41,348 nt of DNA, from the NCBI GenBank assembly GCA_019119335.1, contig DWXF01000013.1:1-41348 (forward strand), read 5' to 3'. The position numbers were made by a program, and so were the translations under genes. This DNA comes from Candidatus Flavonifractor merdavium (GTDB lineage Bacteria > Bacillota > Clostridia > Oscillospirales > Oscillospiraceae). This document shows, in pieces, positions 4,852-14,059 of the stretch. The notes under the pieces are model-generated. The model was given only the letters and a program-made list of their open reading frames with translations, made no database searches and was not told where the DNA came from. Each line of letters opens with the position of its first letter. The first letter of the stretch is position 1.

Positions 4852-5604
4852 TTATTTTTTCGTCTGGGCCATCCAGATGCGCGTTGTATAGGGAACCAGG
4901 ATGGTCTGCTGATGCAGTCCGTGAACAAGGCCGCGGATCTCGCCGATAATCTTTTCAAACACCTCAGGAGACTGGCGGTACACAGTTCCATGGGACTTCC
5001 AGCCCTCAATAAAGTCATCCGCGTCAAGCCGGTGCGTTACGGTACCCTGCAGAAAAATCACCTTGCCAAACAGCCCGGATTGGTCAATGACCGCCGTTTG
5101 GTCCTCTCGGCGTGTTCCGTAGGTATACCCCGCAATATTGGACTGGATAATTCCCTCAATTTCCTTCTGCAGCGGGTCATCCAGATCGCGATGGTTCCAC
5201 ATGCACGCAAAATACCCGCCGGGTTTCAGAATGCGGTTTGTTTCGCTCAGCGCCATCTGCCGGTCGCAGACGTTAAAGGAGGAGCCGAAGGTAACCAGTT
5301 CAAACTGGTTGTCATCCATGCCGGTGTGCTCTCCCACGCCCTCAAACCACTGCACCTGCGGATACTCGCTGGTACGCTTGATCCCGTTGGCACGCATGGC
5401 GTCGTTGGGCTCCACCGCCGAAACGCGCAGGCCGAACTTCGCCAGCTCCAGGGTCAGATGGGCCGCGCCCGCGCCCACATCGCATGCGGCGTCGCCGGGG
5501 CGCACCCCCGCTTGCTCCAGCATCTGAGAAATGGCGGAAGGGGCGTAATCAGGGCGAAGCAGATAAGCTTCTGCCAGGTTGGTATAATCCCACTCAGTTT
5601 TCAT
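4852..5604 (-). CDS. Class I SAM-dependent methyltransferase, candidate phosphoramidate O-methyltransferase
   Basis: 250 residues with the Rossmann motif I DVGAGAAHLTLELAKFG at about residues 38-54, an acidic motif II (VEPND) and a post-I region typical of the Methyltransf_11 group. The ATG at 5604 overlaps the end of the upstream kinase gene by 11 bp. In C. jejuni, Cj1419 and Cj1420 are methyltransferases of the same pathway that supply the O-methyl group of MeOPN. Here only one methyltransferase is present, so either one enzyme does the methylation or the product differs. The small-molecule substrate cannot be read from the sequence; assignment is by cluster membership. Confidence 0.8.
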   Translation of the reverse strand: MKTEWDYTNLAEAYLLRPDYAPSAISQMLEQAGVRPGDAACDVGAGAAHLTLELAKFGLRVSAVEPNDAMRANGIKRTSEYPQVQWFEGVGEHTGMDDNQFELVTFGSSFNVCDRQMALSETNRILKPGGYFACMWNHRDLDDPLQKEIEGIIQSNIAGYTYGTRREDQTAVIDQSGLFGKVIFLQGTVTHRLDADDFIEGWKSHGTVYRQSPEVFEKIIGEIRGLVHGLHQQTILVPYTTRIWMAQTKK

Positions 5605-6106
5605 AATGGTCCCTCTCTCCTGATATCAGTTTTAATATTTGGGCAGCCTGTTCCCGCGGCGCAAGGCCCCCGTTGTTTTCCAGCACCAGATCGGGCTGTT
5701 TGGGCTCTTCCACGGAAAAGTCAATTCCGGCCACCGCGCCGTCTCCCCGGGTATATAACCCCTTTTGATCCCGTTTGCGCAGGGTCTCCAGGGATACCTT
5801 CAGATAGACCTCCACATAGCCGGGAATATTCGTCCGGTTCCAGTCCCGAACGCTGTCAAACATGGAAATGGTGCAGCAGATCACGTCCAGACCCTGTTCA
5901 GCCAGCAGCTTGCACAGGCGGGCGTTTCGCATGGCGCTTTTGAGGCGCTGGTCCGGCGCATAGCCCAGATCGTCTCCAAACACCTGCCGCAGCTGGTCTC
6001 CGTCCAGGAATACCACATTGTCCTTTCGCTCCCTGAGCGCTTGATAAAGCAGCGTTCCAATGGTGGTCTTTCCCGCCCCGGAAAGACCGGTCAGCCAGAG
6101 CATCAT
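5594..6106 (-). CDS. APS-kinase-like P-loop kinase, Cj1415-like cytidine diphosphoramidate kinase
   Basis: 170 residues, the size of Cj1415. It has a Walker A motif GLSGAGKTT at residues 7-15 and the adenylylsulfate-kinase signature LDGDQLRQVFGDDLGY near residues 34-49. True APS kinases sit beside ATP sulfurylase or sulfate-assimilation genes; none are present here. In C. jejuni this homologue phosphorylates the 3'-hydroxyl of cytidine diphosphoramidate, giving a donor that resembles PAPS. The ATG at 6106 is preferred over the next ATG at 6103 because AAGGAGG lies about 10 nt upstream. It is followed by the methyltransferase gene with an overlap. Confidence 0.85.
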   Translation of the reverse strand: MMLWLTGLSGAGKTTIGTLLYQALRERKDNVVFLDGDQLRQVFGDDLGYAPDQRLKSAMRNARLCKLLAEQGLDVICCTISMFDSVRDWNRTNIPGYVEVYLKVSLETLRKRDQKGLYTRGDGAVAGIDFSVEEPKQPDLVLENNGGLAPREQAAQILKLISGERDHYEN

Positions 6107-6160
6107 GGCCGCCTCGCCTCCTTATTCGTGTCAGATCGCGCCCCGGCGGCGCCGGTGCGC

Positions 6161-8125
6161 TCAGTGATAAAGCGGCTGCTCCAGCAGGGCGGGGTCCAGT
6201 TTCAGCTGGTCCATGAAACGCAGCGGCTGGCCGGAGTGGCCGACAAATTGAAGGCCCTGAAACAGCGCGCGCGTAATATTGTAGCGGTTGCCGCGCGCCC
6301 CCTCGACCCGTTTCTCCGCCATGGCCCGGGCGGTATTCTGGTTGTCCAGCAGGGTACCGTCCCCGGCGGTCACATCAATATGTATCGCCGTCTGGAACGT
6401 CTCCATCATCCGCCGGTCCAGGGTGGTCATTTGGGCCAGCTTTTCATCAATCCAGCTCAGATCCACTTCTTCTCCATGGTAATAGTGGAACGTATACCCG
6501 TATCGGGCATAGGCATCCCGCAGGAAATATTCCAGCAGCGCCCGGTCGGCGTCGTCGGAATAGTCGTCATAGGTGCGGTAGACGGCGGCGGGGTCGAAGC
6601 CCCGGTTATTGCCCTTCAGCGTCTCCGGGTTGAGGCCGCCGATGCCCGAGCAGTAGGTCATGCTCTCTGCATAGGGAATGTCCAAAAACGCCGCCAGGGC
6701 GGTAAAGGTGGCGGTTGGATTGAGCTTGCCGTCTTCAAAGCGTACCAGGACGCTGTCCTGGTACAGCCGGTCCTGAGGGTCCACCATAAAGCTGCGGTTG
6801 AGCAGCCACTGGGAGAAGGCGTCGCCCACCAGATTGTTTCGTTTATCCCTGGGGGACTCTTTGTATTCCTGCATGAAGCGAATGGTGGCGCCATAGCTGG
6901 TGGTAATGCGGCGCATGGCGGTAAAGGCTTTGATATACTTGAACTCCCGGAAGATGGGCGAGTCTTTGATCTTGTCGTACTCCTTTGAAAAGAGCGCGGT
7001 CTTTCTGGTTTGCTCGTTGTAGCGCAGCTCATACTGGATGTTGGAAAAGTGGGGCTGGAACAGAAGGGCCGGCACAATGCGGGATTTGGTATCCAGACCG
7101 TTCCTGGCGTATTTTTCGTCCAGAAACAGGGAGACCAAAATATCCTTGTCGGTAGGCGCTTTGAGCTGGCTGAGCTGAAGCTGCGTGTATGAATTGTTCA
7201 GCTTCCGTTTCCGCAGATTTTCTTTGGCCGTCTGGATATTTTCCAGCATGTCCTTCAGCATGGTGGTGCCGATGATCAGCAGATTGGGGTGGCCGTAAAG
7301 CACCTCGTTGAAAAAGTCCGTACCATTGTGGGAGGCCAGCTGAGTGTGCCAGATCATCCGCTTCACCTCACGGATCCCGATGGGCTTGACGGGATACTGG
7401 CTGTAATCGATGCCGAAGCGGGCCTTGAAGTCGATGGGATATTGACAGATCTCATCTCCTATCAGAAAAACAAACTTTTCCTCTTTCAGCAGGGAGACAA
7501 AGTCCAGACAGGACAGATGGGCGCAGAACATGGCCCAGTCGCGGTAGTGGAGGTAGATGTGGTTTTCCCGGCCTACCCATTCGCTCTTGCGCACATTGTC
7601 GTTCAAATATTCCAGCTGATACTGGGAGAAAACATCCCGGGCCAGGATGGGATTTTCCAAGTCCTTGAAAAAATAGCGGTCGATCACCGGGCGATTAAAG
7701 TCTATATAGGCGCCGAACTGGTTTTCGCTTTTGGAAAAGGGAATGAACCCCTGGTCGTCGTAGGGGAAAAAGAGGACGGGCAAGTCCTCAAAGGCAGGAA
7801 AGTCTTTTTGGAACAGATAGGCATACTTGGCCAAAGCCTGGCAGTTGGCCTCATAGCGCGCCTTTTGTTCGTCCACATTGGGCAGGTAAAAGGCCTGGAG
7901 CATCAGGTCCATCAGCTCCGCCTGGTAATATCCCCGGTTGTACAGGGAGACAAAGGACGCGTACGCCATCTGATAGCTGCCCTGGGAAAAGAAAATGTAG
8001 TTGGCGGCTTCCAGCTCCTCCTCCGGCGTCTTTTCCGCCTGCCCCAGCACCAGGGCGTAGGCCTTTTGGGCGCTTTCCACCTGTTGATAGTCCGCCATTT
8101 TTCTGGCCATTTCGATCGTCGTCAT
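6161..8125 (-). CDS. Large protein with helical N-terminus and sulfotransferase-like core; candidate phosphoramidate transferase
   Basis: 654 residues. The first 110 or so are helical and TPR-like (YQQVESAQKAYALVLGQ and similar). The segment SHNGTDFFNEVLYGHPNL (265-282) resembles the 5'-phosphate-binding loop of bacterial sulfotransferases (RSGTT followed by L..HP). The segment VLVRFEDGKLNPTATFTALA (459-478), continuing into FLDIP, closely resembles the sulfotransferase 3'-phosphate-binding region (RYEDL..P...L..FLGIP). No signal peptide or membrane segment is visible. It is the first gene after flagellin and its terminator, with AAGGAG 9 nt before the ATG. Inference: a sulfotransferase-fold enzyme that uses a 3'-phosphonucleotide donor would suit a 3'-phospho-CDP-amidate, so this could transfer the phosphoramidate to flagellin or its glycan. 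It could instead be a glycan sulfotransferase. Confidence 0.6.
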   Translation of the reverse strand: MTTIEMARKMADYQQVESAQKAYALVLGQAEKTPEEELEAANYIFFSQGSYQMAYASFVSLYNRGYYQAELMDLMLQAFYLPNVDEQKARYEANCQALAKYAYLFQKDFPAFEDLPVLFFPYDDQGFIPFSKSENQFGAYIDFNRPVIDRYFFKDLENPILARDVFSQYQLEYLNDNVRKSEWVGRENHIYLHYRDWAMFCAHLSCLDFVSLLKEEKFVFLIGDEICQYPIDFKARFGIDYSQYPVKPIGIREVKRMIWHTQLASHNGTDFFNEVLYGHPNLLIIGTTMLKDMLENIQTAKENLRKRKLNNSYTQLQLSQLKAPTDKDILVSLFLDEKYARNGLDTKSRIVPALLFQPHFSNIQYELRYNEQTRKTALFSKEYDKIKDSPIFREFKYIKAFTAMRRITTSYGATIRFMQEYKESPRDKRNNLVGDAFSQWLLNRSFMVDPQDRLYQDSVLVRFEDGKLNPTATFTALAAFLDIPYAESMTYCSGIGGLNPETLKGNNRGFDPAAVYRTYDDYSDDADRALLEYFLRDAYARYGYTFHYYHGEEVDLSWIDEKLAQMTTLDRRMMETFQTAIHIDVTAGDGTLLDNQNTARAMAEKRVEGARGNRYNITRALFQGLQFVGHSGQPLRFMDQLKLDPALLEQPLYH

Positions 8126-8150
8126 AGAAACGCTTCTCCTTCGCTCGGCG

Positions 8151-8182
8151 AAGAAAAGCGGGGCGGGCTTTTGCCCGCCCCG
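8151..8182 (-). terminator. Terminator behind flagellin
   Basis: A perfect 10-bp GC stem (8159-8168 with 8173-8182, loop TTTT) followed on the minus strand by CTTTTCTT. It lies between the flagellin stop and the ribosome binding site of the next gene, with no obvious separate promoter in between. The modification cluster is therefore probably expressed by partial read-through from the flagellin promoter. Confidence 0.82.
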
Positions 8183-8223
8183 ACTTTCCCCATAGGATCG
8201 GTCCTGCTCGGTCAGATACCGGC

Positions 8224-9999
8224 TTACTGCAGCAGCTGCAGCACGCCCTGAGGCACCTGGTTGGCCTGAGCCAGCATGGCCTGGGCAGACTGGATCAGGA
8301 TGTTGTTCTTGGTGTAGGACATCATCTCATCGGCGATGTCGGTGTCGCGGATGGTGGACTCGGCGTCCTGAATGTTCTCCTGCATCACGGACAGGTTGTT
8401 GATGGTGTGGTCCAGACGGTTCTGGGTGGCGCCCAGGGTACCGCGGACGTCGGAGACGTAGTTGATGGCATTTTCGATGGTCTGGAGGGCAGCCGCGGCG
8501 CCCTTCTGCGTGCCGATGTCCAGCTCCTCAATGCCCAGGCTCTTGGTGTGGCAGTCCTTGATGGTGACGGTGAGCTGGTTGTAGCTGTCGCTGGTGTCGC
8601 CGATCTGCAGGGTCAGGCCGCCGGACGCGCCCTCGGTGCTCTGGGTGCCGGGCTTGAAGATGATCTGGGTGCCGGTAGTACCGGCAGTCCACTTTCCAGC
8701 GTCGGTACCAGTGCCAACGGCACCCTGCTCCACATCCAGGCCGGTCTCCTTCTTGATCTTCTCCACCATGGCGGTGACGTCGGCAGCCTGAGCGGTGGCG
8801 CCGGTGGCCTGCACCCAGTGCTCCACGCCGGCGTCGTTCAGGGCCTTCAGCATGTCGTCGTCGATGGTTACGCCACTGGCAATGAAGGCAAACTTCTTGC
8901 CGTTGATCTCAAAGATAGAGTCCTCCAGAGTGCTGCTCTTGCCGTCCCACAGCTTGGCGTCGGCCAGGTCGTAGCCCTTCATGGCGTCGGTGGGCTTGGC
9001 GGTCACATCAATCTTGGTGGCGTGGTTGGTCTCAGTGGTTCCCTTGGTGTCGGTGAACTTGATGCCGGTCACGGTGGCTCCCGCGGAACCGGGCACCCGG
9101 GCGGTAAAGCTGAGTCCGTTGGCATTGTTAGCAGCACCGCTGGAGATTATCGCCACCTCGAAGTTTTCCTTAAAGGTCTTGTCCTTCTCCAGAGCTTCCT
9201 TGACGGCCTTATTAAGCTCGTCGCGCGTAACGGTAACGTTGGAAGTACCCGTACCAGAGATTGTCTGATCCAGCTTCAGGCCTTCCTCGCTGCCGTCATC
9301 CAGGTAGAAGTTCCACTTGCCGGTGGTACCGTCCTGCTTAACGGTGATGGTCTTGTTGATGGTCTGCTCCTTACCGTTGGCGTCCACGAAGGTCATGGAG
9401 AACTCGAACTTATCGCCATCCGTAAGGCCGGTAGCACTGGTAGCGCCCAGCAGATCGTTGACCTCATACACGCCCTTCACGGCGTCGATATTCTCAGCGC
9501 CCAGAGTGATGTCCAGGCCCAGCTTGGACAGGTCGGCCTCAATGGAGCCGGTGGTGCCGGCGGCGCCGGCCTCAGACAGAGAGCCGTCCAGCAGCTTGAT
9601 GCCGTTGAAGTTGGCGGAATCGGCGATACGGTCGATTTCGGTCTTGAGCTGAACAACTTCCTTCTGCAGCTGGGCACGGTCGGTCTCGTTCTCGTAGGTG
9701 CCGTTGGCGGACTGCTCGGCCAGGGAGTACATGCGGTTGAGCATGTCGTGAACCTCGGTCAGGGCGCCCTCAGCGGTCTGCACCAGGGAGATGCCGTCCT
9801 TGGCGTTCTTCTGAGCGCCTTCCAGACCGGTGATCTGGGCCCGCATCTTCTCGCTGATGGCCAGACCGGCGGCGTCGTCGCCGGCGCGGTTGATCTTGTA
9901 GCCGGAGGACAGCTTCTCCAGGTTCTTGCTCAGCGCGGAGGTGTTGTTGTTGTAGTTGCGGTAGGCGTTCATCGCCATGATGTTATGTTGGATCCTCAT
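8224..9999 (-). CDS. hag: Flagellin
   Basis: 591 residues. The N-terminal D0/D1 region is unmistakable (MRIQHNIMAMNAYRN, then LSSGYKINRAGDDAAGLAIS), as is the C-terminal D1/D0 coiled coil ending QAMLAQANQVPQGVLQLLQ. The central 300 residues are a variable, Ser/Thr/Gly/Ala-rich surface domain, longer than the short Hag of Bacillus, and would offer many O-linked modification sites. The ATG at 9999 has AAAGGAAG 8 nt upstream. Flagellin is exported by the flagellar type III system and polymerises into the filament. Its neighbours, a CsrA-like regulator and a TnpB-like protein upstream and the phosphoramidate genes downstream, suggest both special regulation and post-translational decoration. Confidence 0.97.
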   Translation of the reverse strand: MRIQHNIMAMNAYRNYNNNTSALSKNLEKLSSGYKINRAGDDAAGLAISEKMRAQITGLEGAQKNAKDGISLVQTAEGALTEVHDMLNRMYSLAEQSANGTYENETDRAQLQKEVVQLKTEIDRIADSANFNGIKLLDGSLSEAGAAGTTGSIEADLSKLGLDITLGAENIDAVKGVYEVNDLLGATSATGLTDGDKFEFSMTFVDANGKEQTINKTITVKQDGTTGKWNFYLDDGSEEGLKLDQTISGTGTSNVTVTRDELNKAVKEALEKDKTFKENFEVAIISSGAANNANGLSFTARVPGSAGATVTGIKFTDTKGTTETNHATKIDVTAKPTDAMKGYDLADAKLWDGKSSTLEDSIFEINGKKFAFIASGVTIDDDMLKALNDAGVEHWVQATGATAQAADVTAMVEKIKKETGLDVEQGAVGTGTDAGKWTAGTTGTQIIFKPGTQSTEGASGGLTLQIGDTSDSYNQLTVTIKDCHTKSLGIEELDIGTQKGAAAALQTIENAINYVSDVRGTLGATQNRLDHTINNLSVMQENIQDAESTIRDTDIADEMMSYTKNNILIQSAQAMLAQANQVPQGVLQLLQ

Positions 10000-10070
10000 T
10001 TCGCTTGCTTCCTTTCATTAGAAATGATTTTGGGGTGATGCTTCGTCGCGCTTCGATGTCCTTATCTCCG
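10000..10070 (-). promoter_or_regulatory. Flagellin leader with repeated GGA motifs (candidate CsrA sites)
   Basis: On the minus strand the 70 nt before the flagellin ATG contain GGA three times: in GCGGAGA, in GATAAGGACATC (10066-10055, resembling the CsrA consensus around ARGGA) and in the Shine-Dalgarno AAAGGAAG (10015-10008). In Bacillus subtilis CsrA represses hag by binding two GGA sites, one on the Shine-Dalgarno. A csrA-like gene lies 1.5 kb upstream. Binding is inferred. Confidence 0.45.
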
Positions 10071-10114
10071 CGCATTTGGCCTGGCGCGTTCCGGGCTGGA
10101 CTCCGTGGCCTTTG

Positions 10115-10144
10115 TCATCCGGCCTTTCCCGCGCGGTTCTTTTA
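10115..10144 (-). promoter_or_regulatory. Weak candidate sigma-28-type flagellin promoter
   Basis: The minus strand has TAAA at 10144-10141 and GCCGGATGA at 10123-10115, resembling TAAA-N15-GCCGATAA but with a 17-nt spacer and an inserted G. No better flagellar-sigma promoter was seen upstream of flagellin. Low certainty. Confidence 0.22.
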
Positions 10145-10169
10145 TTCCAACCGGCTCGCGAGGCCGGGT

Positions 10170-10406
10170 GAAACCAAAATAAAATATCATATTATGCTGA
10201 GTGGACGGCCCGGAAGCGCCGGGCTTTGGGCGCGTCCCCCGCTCTGCGGCGGAGGAGTAGCCCTCTGTTCTTCCCACCTGGCGGCTTTTGTCGGAAGCAC
10301 CGACCGAACCGGCAAACTCTTTTGCCGGTCAGGTCAGCGCTCCCCGGCCGCGCGCATGGGCATTCACCGGCGTCCCGACCGGTATAGCGTGAGGGGAGCG
10401 GCAGGC
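10170..10406 (-). ncRNA. Candidate guide (omega-like) RNA downstream of the TnpB-like gene
   Basis: This is the place where TnpB proteins encode their guide RNA, directly behind the stop codon. On the minus strand it holds three clean hairpins: ACCGGCAAA paired across AGAG (10329-10308), GTCGG/CCGAC with loop TGCTT (10304-10290), and GCCCGG/CCGGGC with loop CGCTT (10224-10208). The last two share GCTTCCG. After the third hairpin the sequence switches abruptly from GC-rich to an AT-rich run (about 10199-10174), which is where a guide segment would sit. No open reading frame of note covers it. The AT-rich part could instead be a promoter. Confidence 0.42.
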
Positions 10407-11582
10407 TCAGGCAACGCCCGCCTGCCGGGAAAAGGCCGCAAGGCCGAAGTCCCGGATATTCCGGGCGGTATTTTTCTCGCGGAGCAGTTCTTCCCCACAG
10501 TGGGGACACACCCAGTCTCTGGCCCGCATCGGCAGCTTCTCGTTCACATGGCCGCAGGCGTGACAGGTCTTGGCGGCTGGCGCGTAGGGGTCCACGTCGA
10601 TGTACGGCTTGCCCTGGGCCTCCAGCTTGTAGCGCAGGAACGCCCGGAACATACCAAAGCCGGAGTCCAGCACATTTCCGCCCTTGAGGCGCTGGGCCAT
10701 CACATTCAGGTCGTCATCCCGCACACACACGGCGTCCCAGGCGTTGGCTATCCGCCTGCTCTGCTGGTGCGCGAAATCCCGGCGCTGGTTTGCGATATGC
10801 TCATACTGGAGCCGGATTTTATAAAGCTGGGCCTCATAGTTTCTGGAGCCCTGCTGCATCCGGGAAAGCTTGCTCTGCATCCGGGCCAGCTTTTCCCGGG
10901 CGGCCGCCATCTGCGGCGGGAGCTCCGGACTGCCGCCGTTGCTGTCCACATAGAAACGGGCCATAGAGTAATTCAGGCCCACAGTCCGCTCAGGAGTGGG
11001 TACAACAGGCTTGGGCGCTTCAGCCTCATATCCAAACGTTATGGAGCAGAAATACTTTCCGGTTTTTGTCTTGGTAATGGTCACAGACCGCAGCAACCAC
11101 CAGTGCAGGGGCTTTCTGTACAGCTTCACTCTGAGCAGGCCCAGCTTGGGCATTTGCAGCCCGGCGCTGGTGAGACGCAGGGAAGGGCCCGTGTGATAGG
11201 GGCGGCAATACACGGTAAAGGAATCCTTCCGGGCCTTCTTGGTCTTGGGTTTGGGATATTGAAAGGCCTTGGGGTTCCTGAAAAAGTCCAGGTAGGCCTT
11301 GCGCAGGCTCTGGTGTACGGCGCAGAGGGCCTGGCTGTCTACTTCCTTCAGGAAAGGGGCCTCTTTTTTATACCGTGCCGGGGTGGGAATATAGTGGATA
11401 TCGGTGGCCGCATAGAACTCCTGCACGTCGGAGAGCATCTGGTTCCAGAGATACCGGCAGCAGCCGAAGGTTTTTTCCATCAGCTCCGCCTGCTCCGGCG
11501 TCGGATAGGCCGGAACCTTGAGGACGGTATAGCGGCTTGACCGGAGGGTCTTAGTCCGGTCTTCCCTGGACTTCCCTGACAT
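10407..11582 (-). CDS. TnpB-like protein with substituted RuvC catalytic residues (TldR candidate)
   Basis: 391 residues from the ATG at 11582 (GGAGGG just upstream; the start overlaps the csrA-like gene by 32 bp). The fold is clearly TnpB/OrfB: a conserved N-terminal domain, the RuvC core, and a zinc finger with CHACG and CPHCG. The three catalytic positions are changed. Motif I, usually GIDLG, reads GLNYS (Asp to Asn); motif II, usually EDLNV, reads DDLNV (Glu to Asp); motif III, usually RDxNAAxNI, reads REKNTARNI (Asp to Glu). No TnpA transposase or recognisable transposon ends are near. Nuclease-dead TnpB homologues (TldR) are known as RNA-guided repressors, including ones next to fliC in Enterobacteriaceae. 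Here flagellin is the next gene downstream on the same strand. Loss of nuclease activity is inferred from these residues; Glu/Asp swaps alone might leave some activity, but the Asp-to-Asn change makes it unlikely. Confidence 0.82.
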   Translation of the reverse strand: MSGKSREDRTKTLRSSRYTVLKVPAYPTPEQAELMEKTFGCCRYLWNQMLSDVQEFYAATDIHYIPTPARYKKEAPFLKEVDSQALCAVHQSLRKAYLDFFRNPKAFQYPKPKTKKARKDSFTVYCRPYHTGPSLRLTSAGLQMPKLGLLRVKLYRKPLHWWLLRSVTITKTKTGKYFCSITFGYEAEAPKPVVPTPERTVGLNYSMARFYVDSNGGSPELPPQMAAAREKLARMQSKLSRMQQGSRNYEAQLYKIRLQYEHIANQRRDFAHQQSRRIANAWDAVCVRDDDLNVMAQRLKGGNVLDSGFGMFRAFLRYKLEAQGKPYIDVDPYAPAAKTCHACGHVNEKLPMRARDWVCPHCGEELLREKNTARNIRDFGLAAFSRQAGVA

Positions 11583-11865
11583 CTCCCTCCGCGCTCCTTT
11601 CCTTTCGCCTTGGGCCGCTCCCGCCCGGCCATTCCTCCCGGCGCTTCTCCTCATACCTGCGTCTGGCCGGACTCCTGGGCCGCTCTGGCAGCAGGCCCTC
11701 CGGACGCTCACCCAGGCGCTCGTGGAGCTCCCCCCGGAGAATGGGGATCTCTCTGGGGGCCTGGATCTCTACGCAAAAAGCTGAGCCGGCCTGTTTGAAC
11801 ACCTGTATGGTGATGTTTTCGCCAATGGTGAGGTAATCGCCGGATTTTAATTTCAGTGAAAGCAT
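11551..11865 (-). CDS. csrA: CsrA-like RNA-binding regulator with C-terminal extension
   Basis: 104 residues. The first 50 are a CsrA domain: MLSLKLKSGDYLTIGENI, then APREIPILRGEL. Leu4 and Arg44, the RNA-contact residues of E. coli CsrA, fall at exactly the same numbers. The core is divergent (for example the usual VRLG is CVEI). The final 50 residues are Arg/Glu-rich and not part of a normal 60-80 residue CsrA; this part overlaps the start of the TnpB-like gene by 32 bp. The ATG at 11865 has an excellent AAGGAGG 6 nt upstream. CsrA binds GGA-containing hairpins and in Firmicutes controls flagellin translation together with FliW; no fliW is in the window. The extension could be a real tail or simply a late stop. 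Confidence 0.78.
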   Translation of the reverse strand: MLSLKLKSGDYLTIGENITIQVFKQAGSAFCVEIQAPREIPILRGELHERLGERPEGLLPERPRSPARRRYEEKRREEWPGGSGPRRKERSAEGDVREVQGRPD

Positions 11866-11886
11866 GAAAGCCTCCTTCTCCGTCCA

Positions 11887-11902
11887 GGCGCATCCATGCG
11901 CC
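11887..11902 (-). promoter_or_regulatory. Hairpin with GGA hexaloop in the csrA leader
   Basis: On the minus strand GGCGC-ATGGAT-GCGCC forms a 5-bp stem with the hexaloop AUGGAU, the A-N-G-G-A-N geometry preferred by CsrA. It ends about 21 nt before the csrA ATG, and two more GGA (TGGAC, CGGAG) plus the AAGGAGG Shine-Dalgarno follow. This fits autoregulation of csrA translation. Confidence 0.5.
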
Positions 11903-11920
11903 GCGCGAGTTTGCGTTTGT

Positions 11921-12052
11921 GTAGGTTTGCAAACCTACATTTTCAAACTGCCTTCATTATTTCTTTCGGCTTGAATTTTAAAAAATTAAGGCCTCCGGCA
12001 GGATTTTTTTATTTGTGGGATCGGTTTGCAAACCTACACGTTTTCAAACTGC
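11921..12052. repeat. Two directly repeated palindromic sites, possible serine-recombinase or operator sites
   Basis: Copy 1 contains the perfect 18-bp palindrome GTAGGTTTGCAAACCTAC (11921-11938) followed by ATTTTCAAACTGC. Copy 2 starts GGTTTGCAAACCTACACG (12023-12040) followed by TTTTCAAACTGC and ends one base before the recombinase stop codon. They lie in the same orientation, about 100 bp apart, with AT-rich DNA in between. Placement next to a serine recombinase suggests res-like crossover/accessory sites; they could instead be operators for csrA or the recombinase. Confidence 0.6.
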
Positions 12053-12685
<633 letters not shown>

Positions 12686-12720
12686 TCATAGGCAAATCTC
12701 CTAACCTTTTAGTTTACAAT

Positions 12721-12779
12721 AAAAAAACGCCCGTTCTCACCCATCAGGCGCCTAACCGGAGAGGGGAGAGCGGGCGTTT
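12721..12779 (-). terminator. Minus-strand terminator hairpin
   Basis: AAACGCCCG (12725-12733) pairs with CGGGCGTTT (12771-12779), the stem extending inward through TTCTC/GAGAG. On the minus strand it is followed by a run of seven T. No intact minus-strand gene lies directly upstream, so it is either a relic of a deleted gene or a leader attenuator for the recombinase. Confidence 0.6.
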
Positions 12780-12789
12780 CCTGTGCATG

Positions 12790-12833
12790 AAAAAAAGAGC
12801 ACTGCAGAACAAAAATCTGCAGCGCTCTTTTTT
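12790..12833. terminator. Bidirectional terminator hairpin
   Basis: A-rich left flank, CTGCAGA/TCTGCAG inner stem with loop ACAAAAA, outer GAGC/GCTC stem and T-rich right flank, so it can work on both strands. It directly follows the remnant of an LRR gene on the minus strand. Confidence 0.75.
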
Positions 12834-12844
12834 GTATGACGCAT

Positions 12845-12952
12845 CTATCTGAAGGCCAAAAGGCCTTTCAGGGGCGAAAGGCCGGTCATGGAGTTGTTGC
12901 TCAGGTTCAGGCTTTGAATGGTCCGGGTATCCTCTATAAAGCCCCCGCTTAT
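12845..12952 (-). pseudogene. Remnant of a leucine-rich-repeat protein gene
   Basis: Read on the minus strand, this short open stretch ends at a TAG (12847-12845) and translates to one clear LRR unit, with IQSLNLSNNSMTGLSPLKGL at its centre (x-LxLxxNxxxxLxPL). There is no start codon or ribosome binding site, and an in-frame stop lies just upstream inside the next hairpin. It appears to be the 3' end of a lost surface or internalin-like gene, followed by its terminator. Confidence 0.45.
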
Positions 12953-12987
12953 TCAGGCGCTCACGCAGCCCGATAAGCGGGGGCTTT
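12938..12987. terminator. Perfect 15-bp stem hairpin
   Basis: AAAGCCCCCGCTTAT (12938-12952) pairs perfectly with ATAAGCGGGGGCTTT (12973-12987) around a 20-nt loop. T runs flank both sides only weakly. It is one of three stacked hairpins in a 270-bp stretch without an intact gene. Confidence 0.5.
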
Positions 12988-13098
12988 CATCCGTTTGAAT
13001 GTCTGGAAATGCCGCAGCTCTCAGCAAACGCCCAGAGAAGCCAGGGCCACGCCCAGGAACTGGCAGATCAGAGGAATCAAACAGGTGATGACAAATAC

Positions 13099-13362
13099 AG
13101 GGGGATACCGGAGCAGTACATCAAGCGCCCGGAGGAGCGGGCCTGCAACCCGGTACTTCAGGCCAAGGTTCTCAACCGGGCGCAGACCGGCCTGAACGTA
13201 ACGCTGGGGCTGTGCGTGGGGCACGACAGCCTGTTCTACCGCTTTTCCCAGGCGCCTGTAACCACCCTGTTTGCCAAGGACCGGGTCACGGGACACAGCC
13301 CGGCTGCCCCCCTGTATCTGACCCACAGCTTTTACCGGCGCCTGCTGGAGCCGGAGAAATAA
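13099..13362 (+). pseudogene. C-terminal remnant of a DUF1847-type metal-binding protein gene
   Basis: The translated segment RGIPEQY...CNPVLQAKVLNRAQTGLN followed by VTLGLCVGHDSLFYRFSQAP and the ending SHSFYRRL-type motif (here THSFYRRL) matches the last 85-90 residues of the DUF1847 family as I remember it. The cysteine-rich N-terminal half is absent; sequence before about 13099 does not fit the family. Read on the minus strand, 13021-13098 looks like the hydrophobic tail of a membrane protein, which suggests a deletion junction near 13098. A terminator follows the stop codon. Probably non-functional. Confidence 0.55.
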
Positions 13363-13363
13363 A

Positions 13364-13403
13364 AAAAAGCGGGCCTGCCGCAGTGGCGGCAGGCCCGCTT
13401 TTT
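13364..13403. terminator. Bidirectional terminator between convergent genes
   Basis: An 18-bp stem, AAAAAGCGGGCCTGCCGC (13364-13381) with its complement at 13386-13403, loop AGTG, flanked by A runs on the left and T runs on the right. It serves the DUF1847 remnant on the plus strand and the CoA-transferase operon on the minus strand. Confidence 0.92.
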
Positions 13404-14059
13404 CAGCACATGGGCTTTAATTCCGGTGAGACGATCAAAGTGGCCTCTGTGGCCGCCTGGATCTGCTCCACGGTGAACTCGGGGTTGTATTCCACCAGCT
13501 CCAGGCCCTTCTCTGTCACGTTGATGACGGCCATCTCCGTGATAATCTTGGTAATGCAGCGGACAGCCGTATAGGGCAGGCGACACTTCTTCAGGATCTT
13601 GGGGCTGCCCTTGGCGGTGTGCTCCATAGCCACAATGACGTTTTTGGCTCCCACCAGCAGGTCCATGGCGCCGCCCATGCCGGGCATTTTCTTGCCGGGT
13701 ATGATCCAGTTGGACAGAGAGCCCTCCTCGTCCACCTCCAGACCGCCCAGCACGGTGGCATCCACGTGACCGCCGCGGATCAGCCCGAAGGAGGTGGCCG
13801 AGTCGATAAAACAGCCGCCAAAGCCCACCGCCGAGGGCGCGCCGCCGGCGTCCACCACATGAATGGGGTCCAGATTCTCCTGAGAAACCCCGCCGGTGCC
13901 GATGATGCCATTCTCCGACTGAAGGGTTACCTGAACCCCCTCGGGCAGATAATTGGGCACCAGGGTGGGCAGGCCGATACCCAGGTTGACCACATCTCCG
14001 TTCTTCAGTTCTTTTGCCACACGCTTGGCAATAAAAGCCTTGATTTCAGACTTTTCCAT
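13403..14059 (-). CDS. atoA: 3-oxoacid (butyrate/acetoacetate-type) CoA-transferase, subunit B
   Basis: 218 residues, full length for a beta subunit. It shows NLGIGLPTLVPNYL near residue 25 and the active-site motif SENG with Glu49, which forms the glutamyl-CoA thioester. GGLEVDEEGSLSNWIIPGKK is the usual oxyanion-side signature. The enzyme moves CoA between short-chain acyl-CoA and acetate or acetoacetate. Its ATG overlaps the TAA of subunit A (TAATG), so both subunits are made together. It is the last gene of the operon and ends at the bidirectional terminator. The exact acid substrate cannot be told from sequence. Confidence 0.92.
   Translation of the reverse strand: MEKSEIKAFIAKRVAKELKNGDVVNLGIGLPTLVPNYLPEGVQVTLQSENGIIGTGGVSQENLDPIHVVDAGGAPSAVGFGGCFIDSATSFGLIRGGHVDATVLGGLEVDEEGSLSNWIIPGKKMPGMGGAMDLLVGAKNVIVAMEHTAKGSPKILKKCRLPYTAVRCITKIITEMAVINVTEKGLELVEYNPEFTVEQIQAATEATLIVSPELKPMC

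What the first reader, a model, noticed from the sequence alone, without database searches (positions are those of the whole stretch)
10407..11582. Nuclease-dead TnpB homologue next to flagellin: candidate TldR in Clostridia
Seen: in an otherwise well-preserved TnpB sequence all three RuvC catalytic carboxylates are replaced (D to N, E to D, D to E); no transposase or transposon ends; flagellin is the next gene on the same strand and a csrA-like gene overlaps its start. Known: TldR proteins are nuclease-dead TnpB relatives that use guide RNAs to repress promoters, and one clade in Enterobacteriaceae pairs with fliC to switch flagellins. Inference: this is an independently arisen or distantly related flagellar RNA-guided repressor, here combined with CsrA. 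I cannot tell whether csrA-linked TnpB relatives in Clostridia have already been reported.
Basis: partly seen in the sequence, partly recalled or inferred. Interest (0 to 1): 0.9.

Follow-up and report, generated by a model that had tools for sequence, protein, structure and literature searches.

The report
CsrA-linked TldR that silences rival flagellins
This is a gut bacterium's copy of a recently published gene switch, in which a dead transposon nuclease uses an RNA guide to shut off other flagellin genes, and sequence comparisons suggest that the flagellin next door avoids the guide through silent codon changes.

Summary
The gene at 10407-11582(-) is a well-preserved TnpB homologue whose three RuvC carboxylates are all replaced. 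One replacement was misread: against ISDra2 TnpB it is D>N, E>R (not E>D), D>E. It lies in hin - csrA - tldR - guide RNA - flagellin, all on the minus strand. The system is published: Walker et al. 2026 (PMC13418256, section 11) describe csrA-associated TldRs with hin, an invertible promoter and guides aimed inside alternative flagellin genes. This is a new member, not a new kind.

Added here: the scaffold ends at GTCCAC (10201) and the guide follows (TCAGCATAATATGAT..., from 10200). In 12 of 12 loci of this type the guide matches a flagellin start within 0-2 of 15 bases (background: 11 of 2801 15-mers). In sister loci the 6-base seed fits the locus's own flagellin in 2 of 19 pairs but unlinked flagellins in 18 of 20. 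Codons 6-7 read AAT ATT in 5 of 30 linked, 21 of 22 unlinked and 14 of 31 flagellins from TldR-negative genomes. I infer escape of the linked flagellin by synonymous recoding. A ~120-bp segment between hin and csrA is inverted in Flavonifractor An306. No target was found in the window's own 82%-complete genome.

The parts
10407..11582 (-). tldR: nuclease-dead TnpB homologue, 391 aa, catalytic triad N204/R288/E369
10201..10406 (-). guide RNA scaffold, ending in conserved GTCCAC (5' end not determined; may reach into tldR)
   Evidence: conserved in relatives, compensatory change at 10 of 57 predicted pairs among 5 sequences; fold z -2.9; GTCC[A/C]C end in 12 of 12 loci of this type
10293..10344 (-). 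long hairpin in the scaffold, resembling the RNase III-cut stem described for an Oscillibacter TldR
   Evidence: comparison with PMC13418256
10181..10200 (-). guide TCAGCATAATATGATATTTT (3' end not determined)
   Evidence: background; no second match at 2 or fewer mismatches in own genome
8224..9999 (-). linked flagellin, 591 aa; its guide-like site at 9977-9991 has 2 of 6 seed and 4 of 15 mismatches
11551..11865 (-). csrA-like gene, 104 aa; CsrA domain residues 1-50, C-terminal tail of relatives lost
12053..12661 (-). hin-like serine recombinase, 202 aa
   Evidence: Pfam Resolvase 1.9e-31; all NCBIfam matches below cut-off
11908..12050 (.). inverton: 28-nt inverted arms 11908-11935 and 12023-12050 (82% complementary), 87 nt between; inverted in Flavonifractor sp. 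An306
11963..11989 (-). sigma-28-like promoter TTAA-N15-GCCGAAAG facing csrA (consensus recalled; 9 of 12 positions, weak)
   Evidence: FliA-dependent promoter in this region in Flavonifractor plautii per PMC13418256

Best explanation
It is a csrA-associated TldR locus: an RNA-guided flagellin-exchange cassette. A hin-like invertase flips a short promoter segment; when the promoter faces csrA, csrA, tldR and the guide RNA (and perhaps the flagellin) are transcribed [inferred]. TldR, with dead RuvC, binds its guide RNA (scaffold ending GTCCAC) and stays on the first codons of other flagellin genes, blocking their transcription; CsrA may add a translational block [RNA and DNA binding shown by others for relatives, repression inferred]. 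The linked flagellin is spared because its codons in and next to the guide's seed carry synonymous changes, so the cell swaps its filament for the linked flagellin [inferred from sequence].
For: Dead catalytic triad: first D replaced in 31 of 31 and E>R/K in 31 of 31 in-frame distinct loci including the window (third D kept in 3 of 31); the more distant L117 and 3 genus TnpBs have D/E/D. Purifying selection. Conserved scaffold with compensatory pairs. A guide within 0-2 mismatches in 15 of a flagellin start in 12 of 12 loci of this type, against 11 of 2801 background 15-mers from the same stretches; 16-base matches in the sister group. An306 guide 15 of 15 to the flagellin of its second tldR locus and 14 of 15 to a third. 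Sister loci: seed perfect with own flagellin 2 of 19, unlinked 18 of 20, Fisher 5e-7. AAT ATT at codons 6-7: linked 5 of 30, unlinked 21 of 22, TldR-negative genomes 14 of 31; unlinked higher than linked in 15 genomes, lower in 0, tied in 1. Inversion in An306. Published RIP-seq and ChIP-seq for an Oscillibacter relative expressed in E. coli.
Against: No target in the window's own assembly: one flagellin only, no ATYCARCAYAATAT site; the assembly is 81.6% complete and flagellin copies often sit at contig ends in relatives. The window's guide has a G where close relatives have T, and the best flagellin site seen anywhere has 1 mismatch in 15. In the window's own subclade the self/non-self contrast is not shown: seed perfect with own flagellin 2 of 11, unlinked 2 of 6. 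The published CsrA motif CAAGGATG lies upstream of 1 of 30 linked and 2 of 22 unlinked flagellins. The sigma-28-like box is a poor match. Target-adjacent motif unsettled: an AT-ending flank here, CAC or CAT in sister loci.
Confidence: 0.86

Rival explanations
1. The tldR gene is a decaying TnpB remnant stranded beside flagellin, with no function.
For: No Y1 transposase in the held genome; a relative in Oscillibacter sp. 1-3 is frame-broken.
Against: dN/dS 0.12-0.13; conserved scaffold, guide and gene neighbours; published activity of relatives.
Confidence: 0.03
2. The codon difference between linked and unlinked flagellins reflects expression level or shared ancestry near the start codon, not escape from the guide.
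For: Codon 11 also shifts (AAT 5 of 25 Asn codons in linked, 10 of 15 in unlinked); TldR-negative genomes vary (14 of 31 AAT ATT); sequences are related and the tests treat them as independent.
Against: Asn AAT is rare further on in both groups (codons 12-60: 13 of 161 in 29 linked, 3 of 110 in 19 unlinked genes long enough), yet codon 6, which the seed reads in sister loci, is AAT in 22 of 22 unlinked and 9 of 30 linked; the contrast holds within genomes, 15 to 0 with 1 tie.
Confidence: 0.3
3. The TldR mainly autoregulates the linked flagellin rather than silencing others.
For: The guide still resembles the linked start (11 of 15 in the window); 4 of 30 own pairs have a perfect seed.
Against: 26 of 30 own pairs have a seed mismatch; unlinked flagellins fit in 20 of 26 pairs.
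Confidence: 0.08

Closest known systems
csrA-associated TldRs of Oscillibacter/Flavonifractor (Walker et al. 2026, PMC13418256)
   Same: Dead RuvC, csrA and flagellin linkage, hin upstream with ~120-bp inversion, downstream guide RNA with a long stem, guide against the start of flagellin genes. Oscillibacter sp. 1-3 has four matches here, one frame-broken and one partial; the paper counts four loci in its strain (whether the same strain was not checked)
   Different: In the window's close group (window, L002, L097 of 32 distinct loci) csrA lies before tldR; in 17 others it lies after tldR. The window's csrA tail is lost. Its target is not located.
fliC-TldR of Enterobacter prophages (FRphi; same paper; Wiegand et al. 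2024, recalled, not held)
   Same: Nuclease-dead TnpB with guide RNA repressing a host flagellin beside a replacement flagellin
   Different: There phage-borne and promoter-targeting; here chromosomal, with csrA and hin, apparently targeting the start of the reading frame
ISDra2 TnpB
   Same: Aligns over residues 22-383 of the query, 125 bits
   Different: Catalytic D/E/D intact and transposon-borne (recalled)
Salmonella Hin flagellar phase variation (named in the same paper; details recalled)
   Same: Invertible promoter next to a hin-type recombinase controls which flagellin is made
   Different: There a protein repressor acts; here an RNA-guided one

Membership tests
TldR (TnpB-like nuclease-dead repressor) | TnpB homologue | tested here: met
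TldR (TnpB-like nuclease-dead repressor) | RuvC catalytic residues lost | tested here: met
   N204/R288/E369 against ISDra2 and intact relatives
TldR (TnpB-like nuclease-dead repressor) | Adjacent guide RNA with a guide complementary to a gene | tested here: met
   scaffold and guide by comparison; the window's own target is not in its assembly
TldR (TnpB-like nuclease-dead repressor) | Binds RNA, binds DNA and represses transcription without cutting | not testable with these tools
   binding shown by others for relatives
TldR (TnpB-like nuclease-dead repressor) | No longer part of a transposon | tested here: inconclusive
   no Y1 transposase in the genome; colinear in L002 and L003; transposon ends not searched for
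csrA-associated TldR clade | csrA or flagellin within 3 kb (the paper's criterion) | tested here: met
   window; csrA found near 20 and flagellin near 30 of 32 distinct loci (one-sequence searches, several loci cut by contig ends)
csrA-associated TldR clade | hin upstream with invertible promoter (most loci, per the paper) | tested here: met
   hin found at 19 of 32 loci
csrA-associated TldR clade | Groups in a tree with the published sequences | tested here: inconclusive
   31 TldR rows form one clade, 97/96, but the published accessions were not available to include
csrA-associated TldR clade | RNase III-split guide RNA | not testable with these tools
   a long stem is predicted

The most novel reading that the evidence does not exclude
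In this family self/non-self discrimination is written in silent codons: the flagellin carried with the TldR is synonymously recoded in the guide's seed, while the flagellins it replaces keep the target sequence, so each cassette is a portable, self-immune flagellin replacement and several cassettes in one genome can form a silencing hierarchy (in An306, locus 1's guide fits locus 2's flagellin 15 of 15).
Probability: 0.6. Interest if true: 0.6.

Novelty: new member of a known kind. Interest (0 to 1): 0.42.

Why it matters
If right, guides and flagellin starts can be read together to predict which flagellin silences which in gut genomes.

Tried and rejected
E>D at the second catalytic site: rejected on alignment. 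First reading of the guide border (after CACTCA, target-adjacent ATTCA): replaced after loci L007, L008, L010 and L120 showed that GTCCAC or GTCCCC is the shared scaffold end; the codon counts do not depend on it. Rfam: 4 matches at E<=1 in 8000-14000, none over gathering score and none at the guide RNA. Published CsrA motif upstream of flagellins: exact motif rare; an [AC]ANGGA[TG] lies at -38 to -48 in 11 of 22 unlinked and 5 of 30 linked flagellins by my reading, post hoc. One search translated loci of the opposite strand wrongly (L013-L016, L020); superseded. Structure prediction was not run.

Rows dropped: from 35 oriented loci I dropped L117 (intact TnpB) and two duplicates (L003 = L097, L004 = L098) to reach 32; L009 (frame-broken) was left out of residue counts and, with the two duplicates, of the tree. 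flags one TGA in the G361 copy (L112); the stretch that I translated is open. L098 ends 199 nt after tldR, so it has no guide. Unlinked flagellins (22) are those whose start lay in held DNA and met the start pattern; copies cut at contig ends and divergent FlgL-like hits are not counted, and L128 and L134-L137 were fetched but gave no start. Linked flagellins are 30 of 32 loci (two cut by contig ends). The codon 12-60 control lost one linked and three unlinked genes too near a contig end.

Literature: PMC13418256 was read in sections 11 and 33 and in found passages and legends, not whole. The other papers listed were seen as listings only; none is about TldR by title. So I cannot say the codon pattern is unpublished.

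Full report
What is there. On the minus strand the order is hin-like recombinase (12053-12661), a 187-nt gap with inverted repeats, csrA-like gene (11551-11865), TnpB homologue (10407-11582), a structured non-coding stretch, flagellin (8224-9999). The window lies in an 81.6%-complete genome of 64 contigs; its nearest named relative among those found is Flavonifractor sp. An306 (90% identical protein).

Dead nuclease. The direct alignment with ISDra2 TnpB and an alignment of 31 in-frame distinct loci including the window put N204, R288 and E369 at the three catalytic positions. The first position is N in 10, K in 18 and S, H or C in 3 of 31; the second is R in 28 and K in 3 of 31; the third is E in 21, G in 6, A in 1 and still D in 3 of 31. 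The distant member L117 and three genus TnpBs keep D/E/D. The 31 rows form one clade (97/96), with a warning there that L117 and the TnpBs are long branches. dN/dS against three relatives is 0.12-0.13.

Known system. Section 11 of PMC13418256 describes chromosomal TldRs linked to csrA and fliC, hin upstream of most, ~120-bp inversions with a FliA-dependent promoter in Flavonifractor plautii, guides inside alternative fliC genes by RIP-seq and ChIP-seq, and an RNase III-split guide RNA. The window agrees with the features that I could read from sequence, except that its target was not found and the promoter box is a weak match. Of 400 family genomes 19 have a match at E<=1e-90, 25 loci in all; one of these, G320/L117, is the catalytically intact one, leaving 24 TldR loci in 18 genomes. 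Among 32 distinct TldR loci from all searches, flagellin is found near 30, csrA near 20 and hin near 19 (single-sequence searches), some loci being cut by contig ends. In three loci (window, L002, L097) csrA lies before tldR, in 17 after it.

Guide RNA. The stretch after tldR is conserved and folds with a long hairpin (10293-10344); 10 of 57 predicted pairs show compensatory change among 5 sequences; the window's own fold has z -2.9. In 12 of 12 loci (8 of the window's subclade, 4 of the L007/L008/L010/L120 type) a GTCC[A/C]C motif is followed by a guide matching some flagellin start with 0-2 mismatches in 15 (best motif and best flagellin chosen, so fitted). As a control, 15-mers elsewhere in the same stretches reach 2 or fewer mismatches against the same flagellin starts in 11 of 2801 cases. 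The match uses two registers six bases apart, each with AT just 5' of it. In the 19 loci of the sister group the homologous end (GTCCAA, GTTCCA, GTTCAC and the like) is followed by guides, mostly AATATTATGACG-like, that match codons 6-11, with CAC or CAT 5' of the site. The target-adjacent motif is therefore not settled.

Who is targeted. Published work found that as few as 6 guide bases suffice for an Enterobacter TldR. With the first 6 bases as seed, sister-group guides fit their own flagellin perfectly in 2 of 19 pairs, unlinked flagellins of the same genome in 18 of 20 and other linked ones in 1 of 10 (Fisher own against unlinked 5e-7). In the window's group the numbers are 2 of 11, 2 of 6 and 2 of 4, which does not show the contrast by itself. 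Independently of any border, codons 6-7 are AAT ATT in 5 of 30 linked and 21 of 22 unlinked flagellins (Fisher 1.3e-8) and in 14 of 31 flagellin starts from 17 TldR-negative genomes (one-pattern search over 400 genomes, 34 with matches; unlinked against these 1e-4, linked against these 0.026). Within the 16 genomes having both kinds, unlinked exceeds linked in 15 and ties in 1. Nearly all these differences are synonymous. Caveats: relatedness is not modelled; codon 11 shifts too; TldR-negative means no match at 1e-90, and one such genome (G189) has a start of the linked type.

The window itself. Its guide differs from its own flagellin at 2 of 6 seed and 4 of 15 bases; the best site seen in any genome differs at 1 of 15. 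Its own assembly holds one flagellin, no further guide match at 2 or fewer mismatches (9 sites at 3, fewer than the 13 of the reversed control) and no site of the form ATYCARCAYAATAT. Its target is thus unknown.

Inverton. The arms 11908-11935 and 12023-12050 flank 87 nt. A 121-nt stretch of the window (11919-12039) aligns reversed to An306 at 82.6% while L003 has the window's orientation. A weak sigma-28-like box faces csrA in the window, so I infer the ON state.

CsrA. The domain is present (47.8 bits), below NCBIfam's CsrA cut-offs; a second, better-scoring CsrA lies elsewhere in the genome. The role of the linked CsrA here rests on the paper alone.

Verdict. A genuine and well-supported csrA-associated TldR locus, already known as a kind. 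The addition is the proposed silent-codon immunity of the linked flagellin.

Noticed in passing
11538-11642: Relative to Flavonifractor An306 the window lacks about 146 nt between csrA and tldR, removing the C-terminal tail that the CsrA of L002 (143 aa) and L003 (157 aa) carries.
   Followed up: partly
4852-8125: Downstream of flagellin: a 654-aa protein without Pfam or NCBIfam match, an APS-kinase-like protein and a methyltransferase; perhaps a flagellin modification cluster.
   Followed up: no
L009:4001-5088: One of the tldR copies of Oscillibacter sp. 1-3 is frame-broken; that genome holds four matches at E<=1e-60, one of them partial.
   Followed up: no
L002 and L106 (both in An306): Two TldR loci of one genome may be ordered: the guide of L002 fits the flagellin of L106 15 of 15, while the guide of L106 has 1 seed and 3 of 16 mismatches to the flagellin of L002.
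   Followed up: partly
L118 and the 18 other sister-group loci: Guide position 10 is A (18 of 19) or T (L112), never the G of the flagellin site (GGC of the Ala codon context); reason for this shared mismatch unknown.
   Followed up: no
12790-12869: Inverted repeat followed by a T run between hin and the next gene upstream, seen by eye, possibly a terminator; only a sub-threshold Rfam hit.
   Followed up: no
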